Source: Comamonas sp.
Lineage (GTDB): Bacteria; Pseudomonadota; Gammaproteobacteria; Burkholderiales; Burkholderiaceae_C
Assembly: GCA_028690035.1 (NCBI GenBank)
Contig: JAQVCA010000005.1
Coordinates: 1 to 64,000, forward strand
Direction: 5' to 3'
Length of the DNA: 64,000 bases
In this document: one piece after another, positions 14,880-39,358 of the stretch
How positions within the stretch are numbered: position 1 is the first letter of the stretch
How the letters are laid out: every line of letters begins with the position of its first letter
The notes under the pieces: generated by a model
Seen by the model: the letters and a program-made list of their open reading frames with translations, nothing else
Database searches by the model: none
What the model was told of the DNA's origin: nothing
Position numbers and translations under genes: made by a program

Positions 14880-14927
14880 GTTCGGGACGTAGAGGCCGGA
14901 GGTTCGAATCCTCTCACCCCGACCAGG
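14880..14927 (+). repeat. Central att site: 3' end of tRNA-Pro(CGG)
   Basis: This 48-bp block is identical to 39505-39552. It reads as the 3' part of a tRNA on the plus strand: anticodon loop TTCGGGA (anticodon CGG), stem, variable loop, T-arm GGAGG-TTCGAAT-CCTCT, acceptor CACCCCG, A, CCA. The 5' half is absent, so it is not a functional tRNA. Four bases before it (14877-14880, TACG) still pair with the CGTA of the anticodon stem. It is attR of island A and attL of island B. Confidence 0.93.
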
Positions 14928-15078: not shown

Positions 15079-16701
15079 ATGCCTGTGGCACATATCGAAA
15101 ATCGCTCGCGAACCAGGGTCACCGTCAAAAATCGCGATGACCTGACGCGTTTCTTCCCTTTCAATAAAAATGATGCAGCAAAGCTGTACTTCGCTGAGCT
15201 GAAGGCTCAAGGCCTCAAACCAGCTGCGACCGTCCTAGACGAGGCATACCTCGTGCGTTACAAGGCCAATGGTCGACGCCAGACGTTCACAGCCACCAGT
15301 CATGATGAAGCAATCGCTGTAAAAAAGCGCATTGAAGCAGAGCAGCATTCAGGCCTGTTCATCAACTACAGCAAAGCGCACCAAACAACTTTTGCCGACC
15401 TGCTCACTCGCTACCTGCATGAGGAGGCTCCGCGCAAGAAGGGCTTTCTCGTCATTGGCTACCAAATTAATTCTTGGCTCCAAGATGTTGGGCTCGAACG
15501 CCAAGATATCGCTGCCATACACGCCGCACACCCCAATCCGCACAACCCTGCACTGCGCATTCCCAAGACCACTGGTCGGCGCATGTCTTCTACCTGCTCA
15601 ACTGTTGCATTCATTCGCAAAAGCTTTGTAGCAATTGGCCCAGAGGACTTCAGGGACTACATAGATGAGCGCCTGCAATCAGCAGAACCAGCCACTGTGG
15701 ATCGCGAACTTGACGTGTTCCGTGCGGTTTGCAAAACGGCTATCGCCACTTGGCGCATCCATGTTCACATGGACCCGATGGCTGGATTGGAGCGCCCTAA
15801 ATACTTCAACGAACGCGACCGAAGACTACGCCCAGGCGAAGAAGAGCGACTCATGGAAGCAGCAGCGGATGAAGACAAACGCTGGACCGAGCGCTTACTC
15901 GCCGACCAACATTTTGAAAACCGCCCTTCGTCAACGAAGTACCAACGACTCATAGCCATTCAAGAAGCACGCGACGTAGTACAACAAGGCCATGGACTCA
16001 TCCCCATGCTGTCAACGTTCCTGCAGTTCCAACTCATGACCGGAGCGCGCAGAAGTGAAACGTTAAAACTCACTTGGGCACATGTTGACCTAGAACGTCA
16101 AGCGGCCTTTCTTCCCGAAACGAAGAATGGGCGCCCGCGCACGCTGCCACTGCGCCTGGACTTGGTAGCGCTACTGCAGCAACTCCCCCGAACAGGCGAG
16201 TACGTTTTTCCAATTCCTGCGGACTATCTACGCAACGCCTGGAGCCGCATGTGCCAAGCAGCAGGCATTGAAACAGAGGGAGAGGGACGGCTGCGCATCC
16301 ACGACCTGCGCCATGAAGCCATCTCACGCGTTGCCGAGGTGGGTAGCCAAACGCCCGGAGGCTTCTCTTTGCTAGACCTGCAGGCATTCAGCGGACATCG
16401 CGACCCACGCATGTTGATGCGCTACACCCACTTGACCCCGACTGGGCTGGCTCGTCGTCTTGACCTGGCCTTCTCACAAAAGGGCCTAAAGGACGGCACC
16501 ACTACCGTGCATAAAGGGCGAATGCGTCTCACCACAGCAGCGCAGCAGTCCATGCAAGAGCTGATGACCCTGCCCCTGTCAAACCAGATAGCAGACAACG
16601 GGTTCGAGATTGCACAGCTTGCCACGGTAGAACAAGCCCACAAAACATTGCCAAGCAATGTAGTGAGCTTTCACAACTACCGAAAAGCGGCTGCAGCATA
16701 A
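15079..16701 (+). CDS. Tyrosine-type integrase of island B
   Basis: A 540-residue tyrosine recombinase, longer than usual because of inserted segments in the central region. Catalytic motifs are MTGARRSETLKL (Arg, about residue 322), HDLRHEAISR (about 410), SGHRDPRML (about 440) and Tyr in MRYTHLTP. It reads rightward, starting 151 bp from the att at 14880-14927, as expected for the integrase of the island to its right. The gene looks intact and should allow integration. Excision may need the AlpA-like protein at the other end of the island. Confidence 0.93.
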   Translation: MPVAHIENRSRTRVTVKNRDDLTRFFPFNKNDAAKLYFAELKAQGLKPAATVLDEAYLVRYKANGRRQTFTATSHDEAIAVKKRIEAEQHSGLFINYSKAHQTTFADLLTRYLHEEAPRKKGFLVIGYQINSWLQDVGLERQDIAAIHAAHPNPHNPALRIPKTTGRRMSSTCSTVAFIRKSFVAIGPEDFRDYIDERLQSAEPATVDRELDVFRAVCKTAIATWRIHVHMDPMAGLERPKYFNERDRRLRPGEEERLMEAAADEDKRWTERLLADQHFENRPSSTKYQRLIAIQEARDVVQQGHGLIPMLSTFLQFQLMTGARRSETLKLTWAHVDLERQAAFLPETKNGRPRTLPLRLDLVALLQQLPRTGEYVFPIPADYLRNAWSRMCQAAGIETEGEGRLRIHDLRHEAISRVAEVGSQTPGGFSLLDLQAFSGHRDPRMLMRYTHLTPTGLARRLDLAFSQKGLKDGTTTVHKGRMRLTTAAQQSMQELMTLPLSNQIADNGFEIAQLATVEQAHKTLPSNVVSFHNYRKAAAA

Positions 16702-16835: not shown

Positions 16836-17690
16836 ATGCAGTTCTCACCCAGTAATATCGACACCCGACCGCATTCTTCCTTTGTTGGGATACATCAGGA
16901 GTTGTGTTTCTCACCGAGCTGGTTACACCGTGCATCTAAAGGCTACGCTTCCATTGGCGCCAAAGAACTTGGGAAAGCAGGCACTGCGCCAGCACACCGC
17001 ATGGTTGCCATGCTTTTGTTGGGACAGCTTTTCCCTGGGGACTCGGTGCTACACCGCTGTGGCAACCGTAAATGCCACAACCCATACCACCTGTACATTG
17101 GCGGCGATGCTGAAAATAAGCGCGATGCAAAGCTACACAGGACGAGTGGGCAACTTTGGGGAAATCTCTATCAGACCTGCGGCTTCGGCACTCACATCGT
17201 TGAGATGCAGCAACCGCTGGTGTTGAGCACAGAAACTTGTCGAAGGTCACTCAAGTTCAAAGGCTTTACTCCGTGCGCATGTTTTCACGTTGACTGGCTC
17301 GCAGCAACCACTGATGGCTACCCGCAACTGCATGGCCATCAACTTCCAGCAGATATAGCAGGAGCGCACCGCAAGATTCACCAGTTATTCTGCGGCCCCA
17401 TCGACAGATACGACATCGTTGGACACCGCTGTGGAGACCCGACTTGCCTCAACCCTTACCATCTCGCCATTGTGGGCCGGGCAGACATCGGCGAGTGGAA
17501 TCTGAAGTACGACAAGCGCTTCAAGCTAACACCTGCAGACCACGCCCGAATTGCCTTATCCACAGCTACGAATGCACAACTTGCCGCAGATTTTGGTGTG
17601 CATCCTCAAACGATTCAAAGCTACAGGTTGTCTGGCCGCAACGGTCGACAAACTGGCAGAAATTATTCAAGAGTTCGCACAACTACATAG
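16836..17690 (+). CDS. Double His-Me-finger (zinc-loop) endonuclease-like protein
   Basis: The 284-residue protein contains two copies of a Cys/His signature like the zinc loop of I-PpoI-type His-Me-finger endonucleases: HRCGNRKCHNPYHL from residue 73 and HRCGDPTCLNPYHL from residue 197. Each copy is preceded by a His-containing helix (APAHRMVAML and AGAHRKIHQLF). The C-terminal 50 residues look like a helix-turn-helix (NAQLAADFGVHPQTIQSYRL). Tandem duplication plus a DNA-binding tail suggests a site-specific nicking or cutting enzyme. It lies downstream of the integrase on the same strand, so either a mobility or a defence role is possible. Moderate confidence in fold, low in role. Confidence 0.65.
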   Translation: MQFSPSNIDTRPHSSFVGIHQELCFSPSWLHRASKGYASIGAKELGKAGTAPAHRMVAMLLLGQLFPGDSVLHRCGNRKCHNPYHLYIGGDAENKRDAKLHRTSGQLWGNLYQTCGFGTHIVEMQQPLVLSTETCRRSLKFKGFTPCACFHVDWLAATTDGYPQLHGHQLPADIAGAHRKIHQLFCGPIDRYDIVGHRCGDPTCLNPYHLAIVGRADIGEWNLKYDKRFKLTPADHARIALSTATNAQLAADFGVHPQTIQSYRLSGRNGRQTGRNYSRVRTTT

Positions 17691-19035: not shown

Positions 19036-22000
19036 TTGAACGTTTTTGAATTTCGCCAAACGCTGGTCAACGAGTACGCTCAGTTCACGCGTAGCTTCAC
19101 ACGCATCAAGGCCGATGACATCCGGACTTTTGTCGATGCAGAGTACACATCGCAGAAGTACTGGCCTGAACCCCTCATCCAAGTTAACCCGAATTTTCAG
19201 CCGGGTGGCAGCGTCGAATCGCTGTGCGAAGCTGGGCAGCTCAACCCACAGTGTGCAGAAATCTTTCGCTTTGGAAAAACAGTCTCCTCCGCTGGCGAGA
19301 CACTGCCCTTGTACAAGCACCAAGTGGAGGCTATCAGTTTGGCCTCGGCAGGCGAAAGTTATGTGCTGACGACCGGCACAGGCTCCGGCAAATCACTCTC
19401 CTATTTCATACCCATTGTGGATGCTTGCCTCGCGGCAAGATTGGCCGACAAAACGCCTAGAACCCGGGCCATCGTCGTTTACCCAATGAACGCACTGGCG
19501 AACAGCCAGCTGGAAGAACTCAAGAAATTCCTGGGCGCCGACCCTGGTACCCGAGCCGTGACGTTCGGGCGCTTCACTGGGCAAGAGAGCACCGAAGAGC
19601 GCGAGGCCATGAAGGCGAACCCGCCGGACATCCTGCTGACCAACTTCATGATGTTGGAGTTGCTGCTCACTAGGCAAAACGCTATTGACCAGCAAGTCAT
19701 TGCCAATGCCAAGGGCCTGCGGTTTATGGTTTTGGATGAGCTACACACTTATCGCGGTCGCCAGGGTGCCGATGTTGCCTTGTTGGTACGCCGTGTGCGT
19801 GAAGCGCTGGCCGACCGCCTAGTCTGTATCGGAACGTCGGCCACCATGGCCACTGACGGCACAGAAATCGAGCGTAACGCCAAGGTGGCGGAAGTCGCAA
19901 GTCGCTTGTTCGGCATCAAGATTCCGGTGACCAACATCATTACCGAGACCCTCAAGCGCACCACACCTGAGACCGAAACCCTTGAAACTATCGCCCCCCG
20001 CCTGGCTGGCGCGATTCAAGCAGGCGTCCCCCAAGACCTCGATTTCGCGGCCATGGCACAGCACCCTGTGTCCATCTGGGTGGAGCTGACACTGGGCTTG
20101 ACGTACGAGAGCGGCAAACCACGCCGCGCCAAACCCAAAACCCTGGAGCACGCTGCCCAACTGTTGGCTGAGGCCTCCGGGCTGGAGCCAACCCAATGCA
20201 GCGACTATTTGCAGCGTTTCCTGCTCAAGGCTTACAACGTCGCAGACCCTTCCGGTAAATCGCTATTTGCTTTCAAGCTGCACCAGTTCATATCTGGTGG
20301 TGGAAAAGTTTTCACCTCGCTGGAAACACCGGGGCAACGCACCGTCACCCTGGATGGTCAGCAGTTCGTTTCAGGCGACCGCAGCCGCCACCTCTACAAC
20401 GTCCACTTCTGCCGCGATTGCGGGCAAGAGTACATCCCTGTTTGGGATCAAGACGGCGCGGAGGGACGCACTTTTGCCGTTCGCAGCATCGAAGAACGTG
20501 AGCATGAGGACGATGCCATCAAGGCGGGCTTCCTGATGCCAGATGTCTCAGGCATCTGGGACGAGGGTAACCTTGAAAACTATCCAGAGACTTGGATTGA
20601 AGAGCGCACGGACGGCGAATGGCGTGTCAAACCTGCGCAAAAGAAGTTCTTACCGCAAGCGGTCAAGGTGCGCTCTGATGGTGTGATTACCAATACAGGC
20701 GGCTTGAGAGCCTGGTTTATCCCCGGCAGCTTCAGGTTTTGTTTGTCCTGCGGAGTCACCCACACCACTGCCGGTAAAGACTCACTGCGATTGACATCCC
20801 TGTCTGGTGAAGGCCGAAGCTCGGCGACCACCATGCTGACCTTGGCCTCACTGCGTTACTTGTACGAACAAGACCACGAGCTCTCGCCTGATGCCAAAAA
20901 GGTGTTGGGCTTTTCCGATAACCGACAGGACGCATCACTACAGGCGGGGCATTTCAATGACTTTTTACAGGTATTGCTCACCCGCTCCGCCTTGTATTCG
21001 GCCCTGGAAGCTGCGCCGAACCACGTTTTGTCGGAAAAGGACATTGCCAACGCTGTCTTCGTCGCTCTAGGGTTTGACCGCGATGACTACGCAGTGCGCG
21101 CCGAATACATGCAGCAGCCTGATGTCAAAGGCAACACCCGGCGCCAGGTGCAAGAGGCGATGCGCTCCATCCTCGGGTATCGGACTTTCTTTGACCTGCG
21201 CAGAGGATGGCGTTTTAACAACCCCAACTTGGAACAGCTGGGGTTGATGCAAATCCATTACCAGGACATTGATGATCTGGCGGCCGATGAGAAGGAGTGG
21301 AGTGAAGCACCCCAAGTGCTGCGTGCAGCCAGACCCGCTGAACGCGCCCATGTACTGCGCTTACTGTTTGGTTTCATGCGCGAGGGCTTGTGCGTGGCAT
21401 CACGCTACCTAGACCGCACAGAACTCGACCAATTGCGCACGGTCAGCTTCGCCAATCTCTGCGAGCCCTGGGGCTTCACGGAAGATGAACGGCCCGTTCC
21501 TGCACGATGGTTTGTCACCAATCGGCCCAAGGAGGAGAAGCCACACCGCAGCAAGCGTCAGAAGCTGGAAGAGTACTTGGCTATTGGATCCAGCCGCTCT
21601 CGCTTGGGCAAAGAGCTGCGCAAGAGCAGCACCTGGGGCGGTGGCAATCCGTTTTACAAAGAAATCAAGGATGCAACGTACGGCAACGTGGTGTCAGCCC
21701 TGCTCAAAGCCGCTGAAAGCTATGGCCTGGTTCGCAAGGAAGAAACCGACTTTGGTCTCACTGGCTGGCAGCTCAATGGCAGCGCCATGCTCTGGAGCGT
21801 GGGAGATGGCACCACCGGCCGCCAAGCCCACGACAACGCATTCTTTCGCAATCTTTATAGGAATATCGCCAAACTTTTGAGCGAGCCCGCCCATCGGCTG
21901 TTTGACTTTGAGGCTCGTGAGCACACCGCCCAGGTGGAGCAGGAAGACCGTCTGGAGCGCGAGGCCCGGTTCCGCTTCACGGACAAAGACCAGGGCGAAT

Positions 22001-24363
22001 GGCGTGAAAAACACGGCCATGAACTCGAATGGCTCCCGGTGCTGTTCTGCTCCCCCACTATGGAGCTGGGCGTGGACATCTCCTCGCTCAACACCGTGTA
22101 CATGCGCAACGTGCCGCCCACCCCTGCAAACTACGCCCAACGCAGTGGCCGCGCAGGCCGTGCGGGGCAGCCGGCCTTGGTCATCACTTACTGTGCCAGT
22201 CAGTCCCCACACGACCAGTATTACTTCCGTGACCCGGTGCGCATGGTGCATGGCCAAGTCAATGCACCCACCTTGGACCTAGCCAATCGCGAACTGGTGC
22301 AAAGCCATTTGCAGGCGATTTGGCTGGCCGAAACCGGCAAAAAACTGGGTAACAGCATTCGCGACTTGCTCGACATGGAAAAGCCCAAAGAGCTGCCGCT
22401 GCTGATGGAGCTGGCCGATGAGCTCTCCAAACCAGCTGCCCAGCGCAAAGCCCATGAGCGTGGCTTGGCGATACTGGGCATGCTCAAAGATGAACTCACG
22501 CCCGAGCGTGCCCCTTGGTTCACGCCAACCTGGCCGGAGGCGGTTTTTCAGCGGGCTTTCAAGGAGTTTGATGGCGCTTTGAACCGCTGGCGTGACCTCT
22601 ACCAAGCTACGGCGCAAGCCATTGAACTCAACTACAGCAAGGAAAACAACCCAGCCGCCAGCGAGCGTGAACGCCGTGAGGCCCAGCAACGCCATAACGA
22701 GGCCCGCAAGCAACGCGACCTGCTGCTGGCTGGCAACAGCGCCTTTAATAGCGATTTCTACACCTACCGCTATCTGGCCAGCCAGGGCTTCCTGCCGGGT
22801 TACAACTTCCCGCGCCTGCCGCTGATGGCCTACATCCCAGCCCGCCGGGGCAATATCGGCCGCGAAAGCTTCCTATCGCGCCCGCGCTTCTTGGCGCTGA
22901 GCGAGTTTGGCCCCTACAGCCTGATTTACCACGAAGGCAGCCAGTACCGAGTCATCAAAGCCTTGCTCACGATTGGCGGCCAAGACCAAGTGGCCGAAGG
23001 CGCCAAATTGCCCACCGAAGTGGCGCGTCTGTGCCCCATCTGCGGCTATGGCCACTTTCGCACCCAGCGCGATGCAGACCGCTGTATTTCCTGCGGAGCT
23101 TCACTGGATGGTGCCGAAGAGGTCAAAAACCTCTACCGCATCGAAAACGTCTCGACCAAACGAGCCGAACGCATCACTGCCAACGAAGAAGAGCGCGTGC
23201 GCCAGGGCTATGAAATGCAGACCACCCTGCAATTCGCCCAGGCCGATGGCAAGCTGCAGATGGTTACTTCCGTGGTATCCGATGCGCAAGGCCAGCCTTT
23301 GCTGGAGCTGCAGTACGGCCCAGCAGCCACCATCTGGCGCATGAACTACGGCTGGAAGCGGCGCAAAGATAAAAAAGTGCTGGGCTTCATGATTAACCCG
23401 GTGACAGGCCACTGGGTCGGTGGCGAAAACGAAGCTGGCGATAGTGAGGGCGACGATGCTCCCCCAGACAAAACGCCCCCGCAGCGCATCGTTCCGTTTG
23501 TGGAAGACCGCCGCAATATTCTGGTCGTGATGCCGCACTACACGCTGGGCGTGTTGTCCGAGAAGACCATGACCACGCTGCAATACGCCTTGATGCGTGG
23601 CATCGAGGCGGTGTACCAGTTGGAAGAGAGCGAGCTCATGGCGGAACCGCTGCCTGGGCGCGATAACCGCCAGTCCATCCTGTTCTTCGAAGCCGCTGAA
23701 GGCGGAGCCGGGGTGCTCACCCGCATTGCCACCGAGCCCAAGGCTTTGCAGGCGGTTGCCGCAGAGGCACTGCGCATCATGCACTTTCAGACACCGGCGC
23801 AAGGCCAAGGTTGGAAGAAGTCTGAACTCACCCAAGCGCTGGACGAGCATGGCGCACTGCTGTGTGAGGCTGGCTGCTATCGCTGCCTGCTGTCCTACTA
23901 CAACCAGCCTGACCACCCCTTGATTGACCGGCAAGACAAGAATGCCGGTGGCCAGCTGCTGGACATTCTGTGCCGGCTCACAGAGTCCACTTCGGCCCTG
24001 GGCTCCCAAGGGCGAGCCCCCGAGCAACACAGCGCCGAGCTGGAGCGCATGTCCTCCAGCTCCCTAGAAAAAGCCTGGCTGGCCTATGTTGAGCAGCATG
24101 GCCACCTCAAGCCCGACCGGGCCCAGCACACACTCACGGCCGCCGGTGTCAATGCCGACTTCTTCTACGACAACTACGGCCTGGCAGTATTCATCGACGG
24201 CCCCCACCACGAAACCGAAAGCCAAAAGGCCAAGGATGCCCAGGCCAACCGCAAGCTGGAAGATCTGGGCTTCATCGTCGTACGCTTTCCCAAAGAACAA
24301 GAGCAATGGCCCGCCATATTTGCGGCCAATGCGGACCTGTTTGGCTCCAGCCAGAAAAACTGA
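19036..24363 (+). CDS. DEAD/DEAH helicase-DUF1998 protein with C-terminal PD-(D/E)XK-like nuclease (DISARM DrmA/DrmB-like or DruE-like)
   Basis: This very large protein (1775 residues) joins three parts. The N-terminal superfamily 2 helicase has TTGTGSGKS at 112-120, DELH at 234-237, SAT near 265 and motif VI RSGRAGRAG from 1036. After a Cys pair region (CPICG at 1333) comes a DUF1998 domain ending in the cysteine motif C1610, C1614, C1617 (CEAGCYRCLLSYYNQ). The C-terminal 100 residues look like a DUF559/Vsr-type nuclease (D1708, then VFIDGPHH with D1721). DISARM splits the helicase and DUF1998 between DrmA and DrmB; Druantia DruE joins them. The start is TTG 19036 (MNVFEF, GCGGGA upstream). 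It is the first gene of the cluster; the next starts 2 bp after its stop. Confidence 0.85.
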   Translation: MNVFEFRQTLVNEYAQFTRSFTRIKADDIRTFVDAEYTSQKYWPEPLIQVNPNFQPGGSVESLCEAGQLNPQCAEIFRFGKTVSSAGETLPLYKHQVEAISLASAGESYVLTTGTGSGKSLSYFIPIVDACLAARLADKTPRTRAIVVYPMNALANSQLEELKKFLGADPGTRAVTFGRFTGQESTEEREAMKANPPDILLTNFMMLELLLTRQNAIDQQVIANAKGLRFMVLDELHTYRGRQGADVALLVRRVREALADRLVCIGTSATMATDGTEIERNAKVAEVASRLFGIKIPVTNIITETLKRTTPETETLETIAPRLAGAIQAGVPQDLDFAAMAQHPVSIWVELTLGLTYESGKPRRAKPKTLEHAAQLLAEASGLEPTQCSDYLQRFLLKAYNVADPSGKSLFAFKLHQFISGGGKVFTSLETPGQRTVTLDGQQFVSGDRSRHLYNVHFCRDCGQEYIPVWDQDGAEGRTFAVRSIEEREHEDDAIKAGFLMPDVSGIWDEGNLENYPETWIEERTDGEWRVKPAQKKFLPQAVKVRSDGVITNTGGLRAWFIPGSFRFCLSCGVTHTTAGKDSLRLTSLSGEGRSSATTMLTLASLRYLYEQDHELSPDAKKVLGFSDNRQDASLQAGHFNDFLQVLLTRSALYSALEAAPNHVLSEKDIANAVFVALGFDRDDYAVRAEYMQQPDVKGNTRRQVQEAMRSILGYRTFFDLRRGWRFNNPNLEQLGLMQIHYQDIDDLAADEKEWSEAPQVLRAARPAERAHVLRLLFGFMREGLCVASRYLDRTELDQLRTVSFANLCEPWGFTEDERPVPARWFVTNRPKEEKPHRSKRQKLEEYLAIGSSRSRLGKELRKSSTWGGGNPFYKEIKDATYGNVVSALLKAAESYGLVRKEETDFGLTGWQLNGSAMLWSVGDGTTGRQAHDNAFFRNLYRNIAKLLSEPAHRLFDFEAREHTAQVEQEDRLEREARFRFTDKDQGEWREKHGHELEWLPVLFCSPTMELGVDISSLNTVYMRNVPPTPANYAQRSGRAGRAGQPALVITYCASQSPHDQYYFRDPVRMVHGQVNAPTLDLANRELVQSHLQAIWLAETGKKLGNSIRDLLDMEKPKELPLLMELADELSKPAAQRKAHERGLAILGMLKDELTPERAPWFTPTWPEAVFQRAFKEFDGALNRWRDLYQATAQAIELNYSKENNPAASERERREAQQRHNEARKQRDLLLAGNSAFNSDFYTYRYLASQGFLPGYNFPRLPLMAYIPARRGNIGRESFLSRPRFLALSEFGPYSLIYHEGSQYRVIKALLTIGGQDQVAEGAKLPTEVARLCPICGYGHFRTQRDADRCISCGASLDGAEEVKNLYRIENVSTKRAERITANEEERVRQGYEMQTTLQFAQADGKLQMVTSVVSDAQGQPLLELQYGPAATIWRMNYGWKRRKDKKVLGFMINPVTGHWVGGENEAGDSEGDDAPPDKTPPQRIVPFVEDRRNILVVMPHYTLGVLSEKTMTTLQYALMRGIEAVYQLEESELMAEPLPGRDNRQSILFFEAAEGGAGVLTRIATEPKALQAVAAEALRIMHFQTPAQGQGWKKSELTQALDEHGALLCEAGCYRCLLSYYNQPDHPLIDRQDKNAGGQLLDILCRLTESTSALGSQGRAPEQHSAELERMSSSSLEKAWLAYVEQHGHLKPDRAQHTLTAAGVNADFFYDNYGLAVFIDGPHHETESQKAKDAQANRKLEDLGFIVVRFPKEQEQWPAIFAANADLFGSSQKN

Positions 24364-24365
24364 AT

Positions 24366-27191
24366 ATGAACGCTCCCGTTGCTGAGTTTTACCCCGGCAG
24401 TCTCGTCTCGGCCCGTGGCCGTGAATGGATAGTGTTGCCCGAGTCCACCACCGATACCCTGCGCCTGCGTCCCTTGGGCGGTGGTGAGCAAGACGAATCC
24501 CTTATCTACCTGCCGCTGGAGCCCCAGCCTGTGGGGCCTGCCACCTTCCCGTGGCCCAGCGTGGCCCAAGCCCGCAACCACTCGGCCAGTCAGCTGCTGA
24601 TGGATGCCTTGCAACTCAAGCTGCGCAGCGGCGCTGGCCCGTTCCGCAGCTTTGGCAACATTGCCGTAGAACCGCGTGCCTACCAGCTTGTGCCACTGCT
24701 CATGGCCATGAAGCTCCCTACAGTGCGCCTGCTGATTGCCGACGACGTAGGTATCGGCAAAACGATTGAAGGAGCCTTGGTAGCCCGCGAAATGCTGGAC
24801 CGAGGCGAAATCCAGCGCATGGCAGTGCTGTGCCCGCCCCACCTGTGCGAGCAATGGCAGCGCGAACTGGAAGAGCGCTTCCACATCCAGGCCGTCGTGG
24901 TGCGCAGCTCCAGCGCCAACCGGCTGGAGCGTGACCTGCCGCCGGGCACCTCGGTGTTTGATGCCCACCCCTTCACAGTCGTCAGCCTGGACTACATCAA
25001 GTCCGAACGTCGGCGCGAAGCTTTTCAGCGCTTTTGCCCTGAATTCGTGATTGTGGATGAGGCCCACACCTGCACCCAGGGTGTCCAAGGCCGCCAGCAG
25101 CGCTTTCAACTGCTCAAAGGCTTGGCAGAAAACAACCAGCGCCACATGGTGCTGCTCACCGCCACCCCGCACAGCGGCGATGAAGAAGCGTTTTTCAATC
25201 TGCTGGGGCTGCTGCGCCAAGACTTCACCCAACTCAAGGACCTGCCCCCTGGTGCCCGTACAGATTTGCGTGAAGACCTATCGCGCCACTTTGTGCAGCG
25301 CCGCCGCCCGGACATTGCCGAGTGGCAGGACTCCAGCATGTTCCCTGACCGCAAAACAGCGGAAATCACCTACAAGCTGACCGGCGCCTGGGGCCAGCTG
25401 TTCAACGATGTGCTGGACTACGCCCGCGAGCTGGTGGAGCGCTCCGAAGGCAAAGGCCAGCGCGAACAGCGCATGAACTGGTGGGCAGCGCTGGCCCTGT
25501 TGCGTTGTATTTCCTCCTCCCCTGCAGCAGCCGTCAATGCCTTGCGCACGCGCCTCAAGGGCGGCCAAGAAGAAGAAAACGAACTCACCCTAGAAGAACT
25601 GGAAGCCCAGGCCAGTGAGCGCGTGATGGATGGCCTCGACGATGCCCTGTCCACCGACGATATTGAGCCCGCCGCCCAAACCGAAGACTCCGCCCGCCTG
25701 CAAGAGCTCATCGCTGCCGCCGAGAGCTTGGCGGGCGCCGCCAAAGACCCCAAACTGGCCAAGTTGGCCGACCACTTGCAGGCCCTGGTGAAAGAAGGCT
25801 TTCAGCCCGTGGTGTTCTGCCGCTATATCGCTACCGCTCACTATTTGGCGGAGTACCTGCGCGGCAAGTTCAAAAAGGCCACGGTCAAGGCGGTCACCGG
25901 CGAATTGACACCCGGCGAGCGCGAAGCGGCTGTGGCCGAGCTGGGAGATACAGAACAGCGCATCCTGGTGGCCACCGACTGCCTCTCCGAAGGCATCAAC
26001 CTGCAAAGCCTGTTCACCGCCGTGGTGCATTACGACCTCAGCTGGAACCCCACCCGCCATGAGCAACGCGAAGGCCGCGTGGACCGATTCGGCCAACAGG
26101 CCAAAGAGGTGCGCAGCACCATGCTTTACGGCGAAGACAACCCCGTCGATGGCGCCGTACTGCAAGTGATTTTGCGCAAGGCCGAAAGCATTCGCAAAGA
26201 ACTGGGCGTGTTGGTGCCCATGCCTGATGATGAAGGCAAGCTCACCCAAGCCCTGCTCAACGCCGTGCTGCTGCGCAAACACAACGCCATGGGGAACAAA
26301 GCCCAAATTGGCTTCGACTTTGGCGAACCAGCCCAGCAGATTGAGACCGCCTGGCAAAGCGCCCGCGAAAAGGCTGCCAAAAACCGCTCCATCTTTGCCC
26401 AGCGCCGCTTAAAGCCTGATGACGTGCTGCCCGAATGGCGCAAATCCGCCGCCGCCCTGGGCAACGCAGAAGATGTGCAGCGCTTTGTGAACCGCGCCAT
26501 GGCCAAGCTGGGTGCGGGCCTGGAGCCCTACAAAAACCACTTCAAGGCCCCACTGGGTGAATTGCCCTCCACCTTGAAAGAACGCCTCGCCGCCGAAGGC
26601 CTCAGCGGCACCGTGCGCATCGACTTTCATCAGCCGCCAGCCCAAGGTGCCACCTTTATCCAACGCACCCACCCCCTGGTACTGGCACTCGCCGATGCCC
26701 TGCTGGAGCAAGCCCTGGACAGCCAAACCAACGAAGCCGATGCCGTTGCCCGCGCCGGGGCGGCATTCGTGGCCCAGGTCAGCCTCAAAACCACCGTGCT
26801 GCTGCTGCGCCTGCGCCACCAGCTCACCGTCACCCGTGACCACCAAACGCGCCTCATGCTGTGTGAAGAAACCGTGGCCGTGAGCGCTGCCGGTGCCGAA
26901 GCCCTCATCGAACTACCGCTCCATCAGGCCCGGGAGTTGCTGGGCGCGGAAGCCAGCCGCAACATGCCCCCCGTGATTCGCGACCGCCATATCCAGCAAG
27001 CCCTGGACAACCTCCCCACCTGGCAACCCGCCCTGGAGGAAATCGCCAAAGCCCGCGCCCAAGCCCTGCTGGCCGACCACCGCCGCATTCGCGAAGCCGC
27101 CGATGCCCGGGGCAGCTACCAGGTGACGGCCAGCCTGCCGGTGGATGTGATGGGTGTTTACGTGCTGGTACCCGCAGCAGCAGGAGTTTGA
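24366..27191 (+). CDS. SNF2/RapA-type helicase (DISARM DrmD-like)
   Basis: The 941-residue ATPase has a RapA-like SNF2 core: ADDVGIGKT with K132, DEAH at 231-234, LLTATPHSGDEEAF shortly after, and motif VI HEQREGRVDRFGQ around 565-577, then a helical C-terminal third. DISARM class 1 encodes a protein of this kind, DrmD. ATG 24366 lies 2 bp after the helicase-nuclease stop; an upstream in-frame start would overlap that gene. The methylase starts 3 bp after its stop. Tight spacing through three genes shows one operon. The motor probably remodels or moves along DNA for the methylase/nuclease partners; this is inferred from DISARM. Confidence 0.88.
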   Translation: MNAPVAEFYPGSLVSARGREWIVLPESTTDTLRLRPLGGGEQDESLIYLPLEPQPVGPATFPWPSVAQARNHSASQLLMDALQLKLRSGAGPFRSFGNIAVEPRAYQLVPLLMAMKLPTVRLLIADDVGIGKTIEGALVAREMLDRGEIQRMAVLCPPHLCEQWQRELEERFHIQAVVVRSSSANRLERDLPPGTSVFDAHPFTVVSLDYIKSERRREAFQRFCPEFVIVDEAHTCTQGVQGRQQRFQLLKGLAENNQRHMVLLTATPHSGDEEAFFNLLGLLRQDFTQLKDLPPGARTDLREDLSRHFVQRRRPDIAEWQDSSMFPDRKTAEITYKLTGAWGQLFNDVLDYARELVERSEGKGQREQRMNWWAALALLRCISSSPAAAVNALRTRLKGGQEEENELTLEELEAQASERVMDGLDDALSTDDIEPAAQTEDSARLQELIAAAESLAGAAKDPKLAKLADHLQALVKEGFQPVVFCRYIATAHYLAEYLRGKFKKATVKAVTGELTPGEREAAVAELGDTEQRILVATDCLSEGINLQSLFTAVVHYDLSWNPTRHEQREGRVDRFGQQAKEVRSTMLYGEDNPVDGAVLQVILRKAESIRKELGVLVPMPDDEGKLTQALLNAVLLRKHNAMGNKAQIGFDFGEPAQQIETAWQSAREKAAKNRSIFAQRRLKPDDVLPEWRKSAAALGNAEDVQRFVNRAMAKLGAGLEPYKNHFKAPLGELPSTLKERLAAEGLSGTVRIDFHQPPAQGATFIQRTHPLVLALADALLEQALDSQTNEADAVARAGAAFVAQVSLKTTVLLLRLRHQLTVTRDHQTRLMLCEETVAVSAAGAEALIELPLHQARELLGAEASRNMPPVIRDRHIQQALDNLPTWQPALEEIAKARAQALLADHRRIREAADARGSYQVTASLPVDVMGVYVLVPAAAGV

Positions 27192-27194
27192 ACC

Positions 27195-31901
<4,707 letters not shown>

Positions 31902-31918: not shown

Positions 31919-33256
31919 ATGATGGATTGGAACAAGCTACTGTCAACAAAACGGCTGGGACGGACAAATGACCAAGCAGAGCCTAAAACACCCAGGACAG
32001 ACTTCACACGTGACTACGACCGAATCATCTTTAGTTCTGCTTTTAGACGACTTCAAGATAAGACGCAGGTTTTCCCCCTGGCGAAGAGCGACTATGTTCG
32101 GACGCGTCTAACCCACAGTCTGGAAGTTGCCAGTGTCGGCCGTTCGCTCGGCATGCTTGCTGCTGAGGTTATTGCTGACAAGCAGCCCGAGTTCAAGTCA
32201 GTCGCACTCCCGCACGACGTAGGAACCGTAGTGGCTACGGCTTGCTTGGCGCACGACATTGGCAACCCTCCCTTTGGGCATGCGGGTGAGTCGGCCATTC
32301 AGGAGTGGTTCGAGTCCAGCCGTGCCATCGACTTGCTTAACGGCGCGGAGCGCAAGGATTTGTTGAAGTTCGAAGGCAACGCGCAGGGCTTTCGGACCCT
32401 ATGCACATTGCAACAAGCACCGCAGCGAGGCGGAATGCAGCTCACCAGTGCCGTGCTTGGTACGTTTACCAAATACCCGCGCGCCTCTGAAGTGGATAAA
32501 ACTCAAGAAACCGGTATCAGTGGAAAGAAATTTGGCTTCATGCAAAGCGAGGCGGTGCTCTTTCAGGAGCTCGCCGATGAGCTGGGCCTGATACGAAAGC
32601 CGGGAACGGCGGCCGCCTGGCACCGGCATCCACTGGCATTCTTGGTCGAGGCCGCCGACGATATTTGCTACCACGTGATGGACATTGAAGACGGCTACAA
32701 GGCTGGCTGTATTTCTTTCCAAGAAATTGCTGACTTACATCGACCGTGGCTGACTGAACAGCGGTGGAGCCGTGGTGAAGAGATTGAGGACCTTGGGCGC
32801 CGGGTTGAATACTTCCGAGCCATCACAGTGGATGCCATGGTCAAGGCAGCGGTGCGTGCTTTTGCCGACAACTATGACGGACTCATGAACGGGTCTTTCG
32901 ATGAGGAACTGACCGCCAAGGTTGAACTTGCCCAGGAGCTCAAAGCATTCAAGACACTCGCTCGTGAGAAGGTCTACAGCGCCCGACCAGTGGTGGAGAT
33001 TGAGGCATGCGGATTCGAGGTCATCGGCGGCTTGCTCGAAGCCTTCGTCGGCGCCATCAATGCAAAGGCAACGAAATCTGAGACGGGCAAGGTTCGTACG
33101 CGCACCTTGCTAAGCCTGATGCTCAAAACTAAGGCAGACCTTGAACAGCTGAGTGCGTACGAAAGAGTCCTACTGGCGACCGACTTTGTGTCCGGTATGA
33201 CTGACTCTTTTGCTGTTGATCTCTATCAACGCATTCGTGGCATTTCGCTGCCGTAA
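31919..33256 (+). CDS. dGTPase-like HD-domain dNTP triphosphohydrolase
   Basis: The protein (445 residues) matches the Dgt family, which hydrolyses dNTPs to deoxynucleosides and triphosphate. The metal-binding His and His-Asp are H66 (TRLTHSLEV) and H112-D113 (LAHDIGNPPFGH), and the N-terminal FSSAFRRLQDKTQVFPL is typical. A strong AAAGGAG lies before the ATG. It follows the methylase by 17 bp, so it is likely part of the same transcript. dNTP-depleting HD enzymes are known antiphage effectors, so a place in this cluster is meaningful. A housekeeping copy carried along by chance is the alternative. Confidence 0.9.
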   Translation: MMDWNKLLSTKRLGRTNDQAEPKTPRTDFTRDYDRIIFSSAFRRLQDKTQVFPLAKSDYVRTRLTHSLEVASVGRSLGMLAAEVIADKQPEFKSVALPHDVGTVVATACLAHDIGNPPFGHAGESAIQEWFESSRAIDLLNGAERKDLLKFEGNAQGFRTLCTLQQAPQRGGMQLTSAVLGTFTKYPRASEVDKTQETGISGKKFGFMQSEAVLFQELADELGLIRKPGTAAAWHRHPLAFLVEAADDICYHVMDIEDGYKAGCISFQEIADLHRPWLTEQRWSRGEEIEDLGRRVEYFRAITVDAMVKAAVRAFADNYDGLMNGSFDEELTAKVELAQELKAFKTLAREKVYSARPVVEIEACGFEVIGGLLEAFVGAINAKATKSETGKVRTRTLLSLMLKTKADLEQLSAYERVLLATDFVSGMTDSFAVDLYQRIRGISLP

Positions 33257-33293
33257 AAATTGCTAATTGTGCGTACTGCAGGAAGGTTGTTCG

Positions 33294-34199
33294 ATGGTCG
33301 AACCGATTCGCTTTGGTTTCCTGAACGAGCCGCTTTTTGTCACTTGGTACTATGGAACCATAAGACCCGTGCCCAACTTTGAGGAGATTGCCAGCTGTTT
33401 TGAGCAATCAGCTGGTGTCTACAAGGGATGGGTCTATCCACCTATCAAGGCAGTGGATGGTCAGGGTGCTGCTGCAAAGAAGGCCTGGGTACCTACAACC
33501 TTTTCGTTGCCGTCATCGCACATCCTCACGCTCAATGCCGACGTGAACCCGGCGCACAGTGATTTCTTTATTGCACTGTTCGGGTTTTTGCATGGCCGAC
33601 GACTGCAGCGTGAGGGTTGGCAGCATTTTTACAAAGCGCCGCTCAGCCGGAAGTTGTGCGACTTTGTAACGAACAAAAAATCCACGGAATGGGCCCTGAA
33701 TCAAGCGCTGGCGTTTTGTGAAATGCACAGCAGCAACACTGAGGTACTAAAGCTGGCTTTTGGTGCCTTGCACTGGCATACCTTCGCGCAGTTGTATGAG
33801 CATGAATTTGAGCGGTTTGATGCCCAGTACAAGGCGCTGGACGCTTGTTACAAGCTCACACTCCTTACTCAGACTGGCTTCAGGGCAGCGACACATGCCG
33901 AAAGAGCATTCCGCTTATGTGGGCACTTCGGGATAGAGCCCCCTGATTGGGTCAGTCCACCAGGCAATCAGACCAACTCAAGCACATCCGAACTCGCGCT
34001 CCGTCGCAATGCACTTGCCCACGAAGCGCTGTACGGCGGCCAACCTTTAGGGTTCGCCCATCCAGCAGACAACGGTGCCATGGTCTCAGGTTTGAAATCC
34101 TTGGTAGCACGCATCCTCCTGAGTACTCTGGGCATAAAAAACAGCTACACCCAATCCAGTTCAACAACGCGGTCGATGTCAGCATTTGAATGCCCATAG
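33294..34199 (+). CDS. Unknown protein with a HEPN-type RNALAH motif
   Basis: This 301-residue protein is not recognised overall. Near its C-terminus it has RRNALAHEALYG, which fits the R-x4-H active-site motif of HEPN ribonucleases (R238, H243), especially the RNxLAH form of the Apea-like group. The preceding part is helical and includes many aromatic residues (LHWHTFAQLYEHEFERF). HEPN proteins are common toxic effectors in antiphage systems. ATG 33294 has an AGGAAGG upstream; the gene starts 37 bp after the dGTPase and likely ends the operon. HEPN assignment rests on one motif and needs structural support. Confidence 0.6.
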   Translation: MVEPIRFGFLNEPLFVTWYYGTIRPVPNFEEIASCFEQSAGVYKGWVYPPIKAVDGQGAAAKKAWVPTTFSLPSSHILTLNADVNPAHSDFFIALFGFLHGRRLQREGWQHFYKAPLSRKLCDFVTNKKSTEWALNQALAFCEMHSSNTEVLKLAFGALHWHTFAQLYEHEFERFDAQYKALDACYKLTLLTQTGFRAATHAERAFRLCGHFGIEPPDWVSPPGNQTNSSTSELALRRNALAHEALYGGQPLGFAHPADNGAMVSGLKSLVARILLSTLGIKNSYTQSSSTTRSMSAFECP

Positions 34200-34358
34200 C
34201 CATTCCAGTTATTTTTCAGATGATTTTTTGCATGTTTCTTCGCCTTCGACTGTTTCCAGTTGGAGGTGCGGTAGCGGGACTTGCTGGACAGACTCATGCA
34301 ACAACGCCTACTGCAAGCACAGCGGCATTGGCGCCTGGCGCACACTAACCCCAAAAAA

Positions 34359-34377
34359 GTACGGCAAAATACCGTAC
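34359..34377. promoter_or_regulatory. Operator-like palindrome of the RHH-GNAT module
   Basis: GTACGG and CCGTAC with a 7-base AT-rich centre, 20 bp upstream of the antitoxin ATG. RHH antitoxins of this class repress their own operon through such palindromes. Confidence 0.6.
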
Positions 34378-34397
34378 AAAATGCAAAAAGAGCTGCC

Positions 34398-34670
34398 ATG
34401 ACCACTACCACCGCCCGCCTAGACCTGCGTTTGAGTGCCCGCGATAAAAGCCGTATTGCACGCGCTGCGGCGCTGCGTGGCATGCCTGTCGCTACCTTTG
34501 TGCGCGATACCGTGCTGCGCGAGGTGGATGCGGCCATCGCAGCCGAGAGCACCGCCATGCTGTCTGACGAAGAATCGCGCCGCTTTCTGGCAGCTTTGGA
34601 TGCGCCGTTTACTCCCAACGAGCGCCTGCAGCACGCCATGCAGGCAGCCGCTCAACTGCAACCGCGTTGA
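34398..34670 (+). CDS. DUF1778-type ribbon-helix-helix antitoxin
   Basis: The 90-residue product begins with the strand and helices of DUF1778 antitoxins (TTTTARLDLRLSARDKSRIARAA broken at residue 23), then PVATFVRDTVLREVDAA and the conserved C-terminal toxin-wrapping tail (SDEESRRFLAALDAPFTPNERL). I choose ATG 34398, which gives the normal length and places the palindrome in the promoter. It would neutralise the GNAT toxin encoded 15 bp downstream and repress the pair. Confidence 0.93.
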   Translation: MTTTTARLDLRLSARDKSRIARAAALRGMPVATFVRDTVLREVDAAIAAESTAMLSDEESRRFLAALDAPFTPNERLQHAMQAAAQLQPR

Positions 34671-34685
34671 GCAACGGTTGCTGCA

Positions 34686-35177
34686 ATGGCACTGCGCATT
34701 ACCTTGCTCGACGGCAAGCTCCATGACCGTTCGGGCTTTTCTTGTGGCATTGCCGCGCTGGATGACTACCTGCACCAACGGGCGGGGCAGCACCAACGCG
34801 ACGGCATTGCCACCACCCATGTGTTAACCGATGACGCCCAGCCTGCCCGAATACTGGGTTTTTGCGCTCTATCGGCAGCGCAACTGCATCTGAGTGAACT
34901 GCAGCAAGGCGATCTCAAGCGCCTGCCTGCCTACCCAGTGCCTGCCATGCGCATGGGGCGCTTGGCGGTGTCAGCGTCTGAGCAAGGCAAGGGCTATGGC
35001 CAATTGCTACTGGGGCATGCGGTGAATCTGGCGCTCTCAGTACGGCAAACGATGGGGGTGCGGGTGCTTATCGTGGACGCCAAAGATGCACAGGCTGCCG
35101 CGTTTTATGAGCGTTATGGTTTTCGCCCAACAACCAGCAAGGCACTAAGCCTCTATCTGCCGATTTCTGCTGCATGA
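34686..35177 (+). CDS. GNAT acetyltransferase toxin (TacT/AtaT type)
   Basis: The 163-residue protein has the GNAT fold of tRNA-acetylating toxins, with the N-terminal FSCGIAALDDYLHQRA typical of the group, the acetyl-CoA loop EQGKGYGQLLL (about residues 100-110) and the C-terminal FYERYGFRP. Such toxins acetylate charged tRNAs and stop translation. Gene order (RHH antitoxin first), spacing and length are standard. It sits between the helicase cluster and the AbiL-like operon and may help stabilise the island. Confidence 0.92.
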   Translation: MALRITLLDGKLHDRSGFSCGIAALDDYLHQRAGQHQRDGIATTHVLTDDAQPARILGFCALSAAQLHLSELQQGDLKRLPAYPVPAMRMGRLAVSASEQGKGYGQLLLGHAVNLALSVRQTMGVRVLIVDAKDAQAAAFYERYGFRPTTSKALSLYLPISAA

Positions 35178-36592: not shown

Positions 36593-37268
36593 AGACTTGT
36601 TTGGGAGCCGCAAGCCACGCAACCCCAAGGCTGAGCGCGCTGCACGACCACTTCGACAGCCCGCACCTCGAATACTTCTGGTGTGTGAGGGCGAGAAAAC
36701 CGAGCCCATCTACTTCCGTGACATGGCCGATGCTTGGGGCATAAGTACCCAAGTCAAGATTGCTCGTAACGATGGTTTGTCTCCTGACAAAATCGTTGCG
36801 CAAGCCGACGAACTGTATGCACAAGCCAGACAAGAGGGCGACGAATTTGATGATATTTACTGCGTTTTCGACCGCGACGCCCATGAGCACTTCAATGCTG
36901 CGATCAACCGGCTGCACACACTAAAAGCCAATGGTCGGCCACTGAACGCGGTGGTGTCTGTCCCGTGCTTTGAGTTTTGGCTGCTACTGCACTTTGGCTA
37001 TACAGACAAGCCGTATGCCTGCAAGGGTAAAAAATCGGTAGGGCAAGTCGTGGTTTCAGATCTGAAAAATCAGCCTGGCTTTGAGAAATACGACAAGGGT
37101 ATGGTTGGCGTTTTCAAGTTGTTGGGCCCAAAACTGGAACAAGCACTTAAGCATGCACAGCGGTTGGCAGCAAACCCGGCCGAACATGCTGAGCATCCCA
37201 ACCCATCCACCCAAGTGCATGTGCTGGTCAATCGCCTTAAAGAACTCAAGGCACATCAGAAGCCATGA
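36582..37268 (+). CDS. RloB-like protein (AbiLii, Toprim-like)
   Basis: The 228-residue product fits the RloB family: ILLVCEGEKTEPIYF (about residues 30-45) carries the acidic Toprim-like motif, and FDDIYCVFDRDAHEHF (about 86-100) the second acidic pair. RloB is the predicted nuclease effector of AbiL. ATG 36582 lies inside the end of the ATPase gene, so translation is coupled. Its stop overlaps the start of the HNH gene (ATGA), making an unbroken three-gene operon. Confidence 0.92.
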   Translation: MAAKDLFGSRKPRNPKAERAARPLRQPAPRILLVCEGEKTEPIYFRDMADAWGISTQVKIARNDGLSPDKIVAQADELYAQARQEGDEFDDIYCVFDRDAHEHFNAAINRLHTLKANGRPLNAVVSVPCFEFWLLLHFGYTDKPYACKGKKSVGQVVVSDLKNQPGFEKYDKGMVGVFKLLGPKLEQALKHAQRLAANPAEHAEHPNPSTQVHVLVNRLKELKAHQKP

Positions 37269-38712: not shown

Positions 38713-38862
38713 GGTGCGCTCCAAATGGGGCGCTCGCTTCCATATGTGTCCTCAAGGTGGTCAAATGACCGATGTGTTGTCCTCAAATGCGAGCAAAAGC
38801 TAGCCGCCCGACATGGCGGCAAAAACAAAAAGTAAAGTGGAAAACTGGCCAGGATGCAGCAG

Positions 38863-39195: not shown

Positions 39196-39358
39196 GGGTA
39201 TCAACGAAAGAGTTACAGATGTACCGTATAGCTCTCGTTCAGCTCGACTCGCACCTTTTGCGCCAGCAAGCTTGAAATTTCCTTCATTTACTCACCTGCC
39301 TGGTCTGCCCGACAGAGTCTGGAAGGGGTAGCAGCTGGCCTGTTGCGCGCGTGAAATC

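What the first reader, a model, noticed from the sequence alone, without database searches (positions are those of the whole stretch)
19036..31901. DISARM-like three-gene cluster with a fused helicase-DUF1998-nuclease protein
Sequence: tightly spaced genes (gaps 2 and 3 bp) for a 1775-residue SF2 helicase/DUF1998/nuclease-like protein, a 941-residue SNF2 helicase and a 1568-residue adenine methylase. Known: class 1 DISARM has DrmD (SNF2), DrmMI (adenine methylase), DrmA (helicase), DrmB (DUF1998), DrmC (phospholipase-D nuclease); Druantia DruE joins helicase and DUF1998. Here the parts match DISARM, but DrmA and DrmB are fused and DrmC is absent, in a new gene order. Inference: a DISARM variant or a DISARM/Druantia intermediate.
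Basis: partly seen in the sequence, partly recalled or inferred. Interest (0 to 1): 0.85.

Follow-up and report, generated by a model that had tools for sequence, protein, structure and literature searches.

The report
ARMADA Type I operon with HNH
The three genes are a recently described kind of bacterial anti-phage system (ARMADA Type I) carried on a mobile element in a tRNA gene, and here and in most relatives that could be scored it comes with a second predicted DNA-cutting enzyme whose link to this system I did not find in print.

Summary
In detail: three tightly packed co-directional genes at 19036-31901 encode a 1775-aa YprA-type helicase (DEAD core, DUF1998/MZB and a C-terminal Vsr-like domain in one chain), a 941-aa SNF2 helicase and a 1568-aa PglX-like adenine methylase. 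This is not DISARM and not new as a kind: parts and order match ARMADA Type I, described in a 2025 preprint (PMC12458937) as a link between DISARM and Druantia. In 64 of 65 loci holding all three genes, order and strand are kept. Two things go beyond the preprint text I read. (1) A terminal HNH endonuclease gene with a VcaM4I/TagI-like catalytic half follows the trio here (37265-38005) and in 36 of 55 scored loci (window included); a variable slot of defence-like genes lies between (here dGTPase, TacA/GNAT, RloAB). (2) In a 28-row group the Vsr-like domain lacks its histidine in 28 of 28, while 27 keep the HNH gene, which suggests effector replacement; the tree-aware test has too few pairs to show it. 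A 48-bp tRNA-Pro(CGG) repeat bounds a 24.6-kb integrase/Rep element carrying it all. Verdict: new variant of a known kind.

The parts
14880..14927 (+). attL: 48-bp perfect direct repeat, 3' part of a tRNA-Pro(CGG) gene
   Evidence: 48 identical bases at 14880 and 39505; intact tRNA-Pro(cgg) with the same 3' end at G000:C10:50232
15079..16701 (+). tyrosine integrase next to attL
   Evidence: Phage_integrase 8.2e-20
16836..17690 (+). HNH_3 / zf-His_Me nuclease, homing-endonuclease-like; role unknown
   Evidence: HNH_3 3.3e-12
19036..24363 (+). A: YprA-family SF2 helicase + MZB/DUF1998 + C-terminal Vsr-like nuclease (frame open from 18976)
   Evidence: best PADLOC model DruE1 1.3e-90
23917..24360 (+). 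C-terminal Vsr-like domain of A (residues 1648-1795, numbered from 18976); E1698, D1728, D1741, H1745 and D1754 present
   Evidence: DUF559; model pLDDT 88.2; Foldseek top hit I-Bth0305I catalytic domain, probability 0.99, E 0.017, no hit at E <= 0.001; residues
24366..27191 (+). B: RapA/BrxHII-like SNF2 helicase (frame open from 24306)
   Evidence: SNF2-rel_dom, Helicase_C; PADLOC model named DpdE 3.5e-217, DrmD 2.1e-88
27195..31901 (+). C: PglX-like N6-adenine methyltransferase (DPACGSG and NPPW motifs)
   Evidence: Eco57I 1.6e-17; DrmMI 6.5e-64; motifs in the translation
31919..33256 (+). slot gene: dGTP triphosphohydrolase
   Evidence: NF002205 472.7 bits over cut-off 439; PADLOC dGTPase 1.3e-76; no tblastn match at E <= 1e-8 in the 80 related loci, of which many end soon after C
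33267..34199 (+). slot gene: 310-aa protein without a family
   Evidence: 0 hits in PADLOC, Pfam and NCBIfam
34281..34670 (+). slot gene: TacA1-like antitoxin
   Evidence: PF08681 2.1e-15
34686..35177 (+). slot gene: GNAT acetyltransferase, probable partner toxin (inferred from pairing)
   Evidence: Acetyltransf_7 1.8e-10
35306..36592 (+). slot gene: RloA/AbiLi-like AAA_21 ATPase
   Evidence: AAA_21 9.6e-33; PADLOC AbiLi 5e-92
36465..37268 (+). slot gene: RloB/AbiLii-like
   Evidence: PF13707 1.6e-37; AbiLii 1.6e-29
37265..38005 (+). X: HNH_2 endonuclease, terminal gene of the extended ARMADA Type I unit (H152, N170, D179)
   Evidence: HNH_2 1.6e-13; in 36 of 55 scored Type I loci, window included; model pLDDT 93.9 matches VcaM4I 6yex E 2.7e-10
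38023..38724 (-). rolling-circle-type replication protein (ORF2/G2P family)
   Evidence: PF23343 1.1e-20
38863..39204 (-). small HTH protein, AlpA-like (the name is inferred)
   Evidence: HTH_17 1.6e-6
39505..39552 (+). attR: second copy of the 48-bp tRNA-Pro repeat

Best explanation
An ARMADA Type I anti-phage system, carried with other defence genes by a satellite-like integrative element in a tRNA-Pro gene. Inferred working: methylase C marks host DNA; helicases A and B load on unmarked phage DNA or its ssDNA-containing replication intermediates and move along it; the DNA is cut by the Vsr-like domain fused to A and/or by the HNH protein X encoded at the 3' end of the unit. The genes between C and X (here dGTPase, TacA/GNAT, RloAB) are exchangeable backup defences. 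Shown here: domains, gene order, conservation of the trio, the link of X to part of the Type I tree, loss of Vsr residues in 28 relatives, element ends. Inferred: methylation as self mark, DNA substrate, cutting by Vsr or X, anti-phage activity of this copy (the preprint tested Type II).
For: Domain composition; gene order YprA - BrxHII-like - PglX-like as the preprint gives for Type I; 64 of 65 complete loci in that order; Vsr-like C-terminus by Pfam, fold and residues; all three proteins align with the validated ARMADA Type II of E. coli ATCC 8739 (A 36% over 213 columns of the DEAD region, B 27% over 561, C 26% over 389 plus the NPPW region); A groups with 28 Type-I-like rows, SH-aLRT 99, apart from ArmC II, DruE, DrmA and MrfA rows; no GajB/UvrD fourth gene in the unit, so not Type II. 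X: 34 of 49 Type I genomes have a homologue, 30 of 49 downstream of the trio on its contig, within 8.7 kb of the end of C where measured, against 10 of 360 class genomes without an A match at E <= 1e-150 (Fisher p 5e-29); A and X distances correlate, r 0.73, n 34, 0 of 5000 permutations as high; in four loci X overlaps the end of C by 4 bases (L051, L060, L061, L065). Element: 48-bp tRNA repeat, integrase, Rep and HTH gene, the make-up the preprint reports for ARMADA-carrying elements.
Against: I found no experiment on a Type I ARMADA. The BrxA-like insertion that the preprint treats as the mark of the lineage was not tested. The preprint's own Type I sequence (WP_108720193.1) was not obtained, so membership rests on architecture and order. 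The tree does not join Type I with ArmC II, and puts the long-branched DrmA rows beside Type I (support 82), against the preprint's tree. The fold match of the Vsr-like domain is weak (E 0.017; E. coli Vsr is not among the 50 rows listed) and DUF559 is only just over its cut-off (21.9 against 20.6 bits). X is absent from 19 of 55 scored loci, so it does not define Type I. The background set is one class, the 49 genomes are of several phyla.
Confidence: 0.87

Rival explanations
1. A DISARM class 1 variant in which DrmA and DrmB fused and DrmC was lost.
For: C matches DrmMI 6.5e-64 and B matches DrmD; DISARM shares this pair of genes; DrmA rows fall beside the Type I rows (support 82, branch 7.55, so possibly an artefact).
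Against: A scores 18.7 bits on DISARM DrmA (cut-off 950) and 303 bits on DruE1; no PLD gene found in the unit; A lies outside the DrmA rows; helicase and DUF1998 are one chain.
Confidence: 0.04
2. A Druantia system: A is a DruE with unusual partners.
For: Best PADLOC models of A are DruE1 and DruE3.
Against: No Druantia partner was hit among the genes scanned; the partners are the ARMADA pair in 64 of 65 loci; A separates from the DruE I and III rows.
Confidence: 0.03
3. X is not part of ARMADA but an independent restriction gene (or the end of the RloAB cassette) that only shares the island.
For: Here X overlaps rloB by 4 bp; 19 of 55 loci lack X; four genomes hold an X homologue only elsewhere (L019, L022, L032, L074); auxiliary HNH genes near BREX and BREX-related systems are described (PMC12839542).
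Against: Of 33 loci in which X was placed automatically it follows C directly in 6 and Y directly in 9; strand and side are constant; A-X distances correlate; in 24 of the 30 genomes with X at the locus it is the only match in the genome.
Confidence: 0.3
4. The Vsr-like domain of A is structural or sensory and never the effector; X or host nucleases do the cutting.
For: 39 of 85 A proteins lack the DGxxH-type motif; in a 28-row group H1745 is gone in 28 of 28 while helicase motifs stay.
Against: 46 of 85, the window's among them, keep E1698, D1728, D1741, H1745 and D1754 in 46 of 46, which is hard to explain without catalysis; of the 21 motif-bearing loci scored, 14 lack X.
Confidence: 0.2

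Closest known systems
ARMADA Type I (Bell et al. 2025 preprint, PMC12458937)
   Same: YprA helicase with DUF1998 and C-terminal Vsr-like nuclease, then BrxHII-like helicase, then PglX-like methylase, in this order.
   Different: Here a terminal HNH gene and a variable slot are added; many relatives have a degenerate Vsr-like domain, whereas the preprint text calls the domain predicted active. Its main text holds HNH once, in a reference title; its supplement was not read.
ARMADA Type II (E. coli ATCC 8739, NC_010468.1)
   Same: Homologues of all three proteins; in the preprint on integrase/Rep-bearing islands in tRNA genes, as here.
   Different: Order ArmA-ArmB-ArmC, plus ArmD (GajB-like with RelE-like domain); no ArmD here.
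DISARM class 1
   Same: Homologues of DrmD, DrmMI and the YprA helicase.
   Different: DrmA and DrmB separate there, fused here; PLD nuclease DrmC absent here.
Druantia (DruE)
   Same: A is closest to DruE in the PADLOC library.
   Different: Different partner genes; DruE III ends in PLD domains according to the preprint.
VcaM4I (EVE-HNH) and TagI (SRA-HNH), for protein X
   Same: HNH half, and moniker residues at like spacing: X H152/N170/D179, VcaM4I H224/N241/D250; a helix before the HNH domain (111-132) where VcaM4I has its autoinhibitory linker.
   Different: The N-terminal domain of X (about 1-105) is shorter and no EVE or SRA match was found.
BREX-related (BR) systems (Rakesh and Krishnan 2026, PMC12839542)
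   Same: SNF2 helicase plus N6 methylase plus fused nuclease (Type 1), with auxiliary HNH, Schlafen, HEPN and ABC genes nearby.
   Different: Centred on a DUF499 ATPase; YprA, DUF1998, ARMADA and DISARM have 0 mentions in the main text.

Membership tests
ARMADA Type I | YprA-type DEAD helicase and DUF1998/MZB in one protein | tested here: met
   DEAD and MZB both over cut-off in A
ARMADA Type I | adjacent BrxHII/RapA-like helicase | tested here: met
   B
ARMADA Type I | adjacent PglX-like N6 methylase with NPPW motif | tested here: met
   C; NPP[WFY] in 58 of 58 C proteins over 1000 aa
ARMADA Type I | gene order YprA - BrxHII-like - PglX-like | tested here: met
   window and 64 of 65 complete loci; C lies upstream of A in L085 and viral contig L165, an order the preprint also reports for some Type I
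ARMADA Type I | C-terminal Vsr-type nuclease with catalytic residues | tested here: met
   DUF559 just over cut-off, weak fold match, five acidic/His residues; E. coli Vsr itself not among the rows listed
ARMADA Type I | BrxA-like insertion after RecA1 | not tested
ARMADA Type I | beta-barrel zinc module with at least two CxxC motifs inserted at RecA2 | tested here: inconclusive
   C479/C482 and C589/C592 invariant in 8 of 8 sequences; fold not modelled
ARMADA Type I | grouping with the reference Type I protein WP_108720193.1 | not tested
   I had no way to fetch it by protein accession and did not meet it; A does separate from ArmC II
ARMADA Type II | fourth gene ArmD (GajB-like + RelE-like) and order ArmA-B-C-D | tested here: not met
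DISARM class 1 | DrmA and DrmB as separate genes | tested here: not met
   one chain
DISARM class 1 | PLD nuclease DrmC | tested here: not met
   no PLD hit among the seven genes of 31919-38005 scanned against Pfam
DISARM class 1 | DrmA family score over cut-off | tested here: not met
   18.7 against 950 bits
Druantia | DruE with Druantia partner genes | tested here: not met
   A resembles DruE, but no Druantia partner was hit among the neighbours scanned with PADLOC (TacA/GNAT genes not scanned there)
Dpd | DpdE and DpdJ family scores over cut-off | tested here: not met
   DpdE 215 against 500 bits, DpdJ 86.6 against 800 bits
ARMADA-carrying satellite-like element (preprint) | integrase, AlpA-like gene, HUH-type Rep and direct repeats in a tRNA gene | tested here: met
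   the AlpA name is inferred from HTH_17 and the HUH class from the Rep family; neither repeat copy lies in an intact tRNA, so the ends are composite

The most novel reading that the evidence does not exclude
A major Type I ARMADA lineage has exchanged its effector: the Vsr-like nuclease fused to the helicase is dead in a group spread over several phyla, and the HNH protein X, gated by a new N-terminal domain in place of the EVE/SRA readers of VcaM4I and TagI, is the nuclease that the helicase-methylase complex triggers. Lineages like the window's, with both nucleases intact, are the intermediate state.
Probability: 0.4. Interest if true: 0.66.

Novelty: new variant of a known kind. Interest (0 to 1): 0.5.

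Why it matters
How ARMADA cuts phage DNA is unknown in the work read here. A conserved HNH partner, and a natural series with both nucleases, HNH only, or Vsr only, turns the effector question into a direct genetic test. It also shows that library-based annotation splits one system into Druantia, Dpd and DISARM pieces, and that the place between methylase and HNH collects backup defence genes.

Tried and rejected
dGTPase as a fixed fourth component: rejected. It has no tblastn match at E <= 1e-8 in the 80 related loci, though many end soon after C. Distant HD-domain proteins sit in the same slot in L044, L047 and L059 (that of L044 matches the PADLOC dGTPase model at 7.4e-9), so an HD-type enzyme may be a recurrent type of cargo.

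'X goes with Vsr loss' as a tested correlation: the counts over 55 loci (X and degenerate 29, X and intact 7, no X and intact 14, no X and degenerate 5) look strong, but the tree gives only 3 independent pairs on supported branches and the sign test cannot reach significance. The five degenerate loci without X are L032, L057, L088, L092 and L094. L015, counted as degenerate, lacks only the glycine of the motif and keeps D1728, D1741 and H1745, so it may be active. A first, looser motif rule gave 43 of 85 where the aligned rule gives 46. Of 85 full-length A proteins 30 were not scored for X, because the contig ends early or the genome was not searched; L019, scored as lacking X, has under 2 kb of contig after C.

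DpdJ reference rows: none in 143 genomes or the controls. Phage records: 2 partial weak matches. Viral contigs: 7 loci, X in 0 of 7, several cut short. Of five plasmid records read, two carry X (A. caldus, Mesorhizobium), two show none after C (Roseomonas, where the record ends soon after; D. radiophilus), and the Hydrogenimonas stretch ends inside C. The Fisher table first typed had a wrong cell; one search replaces it.
Full report
What is there. A is open from 18976, but homologues begin near MDVF, aligned with 19036. A carries a DEAD helicase, Helicase_C, MZB (DUF1998) and a C-terminal DUF559 match; B an SNF2-type helicase; C an Eco57I/N6 methylase. PADLOC's 2023 library splits the system: A is called DruE (1.3e-90), B DpdE (3.5e-217) and DrmD, C DrmMI. 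NCBIfam's curated cut-offs for DrmA, DrmD, DpdE and DpdJ are not met.

What it is. A 2025 preprint (PMC12458937; Introduction, all three parts of Results, figure legends and found passages read; supplement not read) defines ARMADA: a YprA helicase plus BrxHII-like helicase plus PglX-like methylase. Type I generally has the YprA gene first, then the other two, and a Vsr-type nuclease fused to the C-terminus; Type II has another order and a fourth gene, ArmD. The window matches Type I in composition and order and lacks ArmD. The three proteins align with the validated Type II of E. coli ATCC 8739. In a 44-row tree A lies with 28 other Type-I-like rows (SH-aLRT 99), apart from ArmC II, DruE I and III, DrmA and MrfA rows. 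That tree is a quick one with long branches; it does not join Type I with ArmC II and puts the DrmA rows beside Type I (support 82), unlike the preprint's tree. The preprint's own Type I sequence was not obtained and the BrxA-like insertion was not tested.

Conservation. An alignment of eight A proteins found 558 relatives in named genomes, of which the best 80 were kept. All 80 hold A; 65 hold A, B and C, and 64 of the 65 have them in order on one strand; L064 differs. The 15 incomplete loci have at most 3910 bases left after A; in L085, C lies before A. Among relatives 3 of 61 genomes hold A at E <= 1e-100, the window's and two of its genus, and in a sample of the class 9 of 369 at E <= 1e-150. 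The nearest proteins are from Paraburkholderia, Aromatoleum, Pandoraea and Scleromatobacter (74-79% identity). 69 plasmid records match A at E <= 1e-50.

The C-terminal nuclease. AlphaFold of A 1648-1795 on 44 motif-bearing sequences gives pLDDT 88.2; the best PDB match is the catalytic domain of I-Bth0305I (probability 0.99, E 0.017, none at E <= 0.001), which I recall as a Vsr-like homing endonuclease. Of 87 A proteins tried, 2 were dropped as under 1500 aa; of the other 85, 46 have the DGxxH-type motif and all 46 keep E1698, D1728, D1741, H1745 and D1754; 39 lack it. On the tree a group of 28 rows on one side of a branch (SH-aLRT 98) lacks H1745 in 28 of 28 while DELH is kept in 28 of 28. 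This differs from the preprint's statement that the Type I domain is predicted active. The nearest relative, L015, has VDDTHH there, which may still be active; the window has IDGPHH.

A fourth gene. Clustering of neighbours turned up a gene of about 250 aa after C, present in the window at 37265-38005 (P0011). It has an HNH_2 domain. Searching it in 49 genomes that hold my Type I loci (50 asked, L020 not held) found it in 34. In 30 of the 49 it lies downstream of the trio on the same contig and strand; in 4 (L019, L022, L032, L074) only elsewhere (for L032 the contig length shows that the hit is on another contig). In the class sample it is in 12 of 369 genomes at E <= 1e-20, that is 10 of the 360 without an A match (both calls drew 369 genomes with the same tallies, so I take them as one set); there, outside the window, only its HNH half matches, though many ARMADA-linked copies also align only from about residue 50-110 on. 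Fisher on 34/15 against 10/350 gives p 5e-29, with the reservation that the two sets differ in taxonomy. Scored over 55 loci it is present in 36, the window included, with 4 changes on the tree. A and X distances correlate (r 0.73, n 34, 0 of 5000 permutations). Where X follows C directly it overlaps C by 4 bases in four of six loci. On two of five plasmid records read the full length of X matches at 40-41% identity after C: A. caldus (A, IS21 insertion, B, VapBC, C, X) and Mesorhizobium (A, B, C, Y, X). The model of X (pLDDT 93.9) matches VcaM4I (E 2.7e-10) and TagI (E 0.019) in PDB, by sequence over the HNH half (2.9e-39). H152, N170 and D179 of X stand in for H224, N241 and D250, named as the moniker residues of VcaM4I (PMC7897488, passages read). 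VcaM4I is reported as held inactive by a linker helix before its HNH domain (same passages); X has a long helix at 111-132 in that place, so gating by its N-terminal domain is a reasonable guess.

The variable slot. Between C and X lie zero to six genes that change from locus to locus. Of 33 loci in which X was placed automatically, it follows C directly in 6 and Y directly in 9. Y, about 660 aa, no Pfam family, ATPase-like by a Walker-type motif seen by eye, occurs in 18 loci, the nearest relatives L015-L018 among them; its distances also follow A (r 0.65, n 18). Others: reverse transcriptase (L016), GmrSD (L016, L030), Schlafen AlbA_2 (L030, L058), HEPN/RES (L058; relatives in L033 and L048), AAA plus DUF4276 (L035), RNA ligase (L027), SNF2 (L021), HD domain (L044, L047; relative in L059). 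In the window the slot holds dGTPase, a 310-aa orphan, TacA/GNAT and RloAB. Auxiliary nucleases of these kinds are described around BREX and DUF499-centred BR systems (PMC12839542; outline, sections 29, 33 and 35 part 1 and passages read), where a compensatory role for a missing fused nuclease is also proposed. So the principle is known; its application to ARMADA was not found in print in the searches made.

The mobile element. A 48-bp perfect repeat at 14880 and 39505 is the 3' part of tRNA-Pro(CGG); searching 41 bases of it with up to 3 mismatches, the only other copy in the genome is the intact gene on another contig. Between the copies lie an integrase beside the left end, the ARMADA unit with its slot and HNH, and on the other strand a Rep of the ORF2/G2P family and a small HTH protein beside the right end. 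This is the make-up the preprint reports for elements carrying Type II ARMADA in E. coli. Since neither copy is in an intact tRNA (one search finds none in the window), the site is probably composite; a second integrase (13679-14782, -) lies just left of the left repeat.

How it most likely works. By homology with Type II, whose four genes are all needed and which acts without killing the cell (preprint), and with DruE III, reported to load on 3' single-stranded DNA (PMC13192584, passages): C marks self, A and B engage unmarked or single-stranded-containing phage DNA, and a nuclease cuts. In the window both candidates, the Vsr-like domain and X, look intact. In the 28-row group only X does (27 of 28 have it). 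I therefore think effector replacement likely, but the comparative test has only three independent pairs and does not reach significance, and I found no experiment.

Verdict. Observation confirmed; interpretation partly right; the trio is a new member of a class described in 2025, and the HNH-bearing form with a cargo slot and a decaying Vsr-like domain is a variant for which I found no description.

Noticed in passing
window 14880-14927 and 39505-39552: 48-bp perfect direct repeat, 3' part of tRNA-Pro(CGG), bounding a 24.6-kb integrase/Rep/HTH element.
   Followed up: yes
window 13679-14782 (-) and 11879-13186 (-): A second tyrosine integrase and a HipA-like gene directly left of the left repeat, hinting at tandem elements in one tRNA site.
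   Followed up: partly
window 33267-34199: 310-aa protein with no match in Pfam, PADLOC or NCBIfam between dGTPase and the TacA/GNAT pair.
   Followed up: no
L015-L018 and 14 further loci, after gene C: Y, a protein of about 660 aa with no Pfam family and weak PADLOC matches (PDC-M68B, LmuB), directly after the methylase and tracking gene A in divergence.
   Followed up: partly
L024, L072, L075, L078, L088 after gene C: Proteins of one cluster (AAA_5, McrB-like, tested on the L024 copy) follow the methylase in Type I loci that lack the HNH gene; four of these five are actinobacterial.
   Followed up: no
L005 and L006 (reverse strand), L039, upstream of gene A; L071 and L074 elsewhere in the locus: Proteins of one cluster (Fic family, tested on the L039 copy) next to Type I ARMADA, directly upstream of A in three loci.
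   Followed up: no
PADLOC model PDLC02853: A model named DpdE matches ARMADA gene B over nearly its full length at 722 bits, so this library's label would call the gene Dpd.
   Followed up: no
G120:C259 (L122, L159): An HNH homologue lies about 7 kb downstream of an ArmC II-like gene, on the same strand.
   Followed up: no
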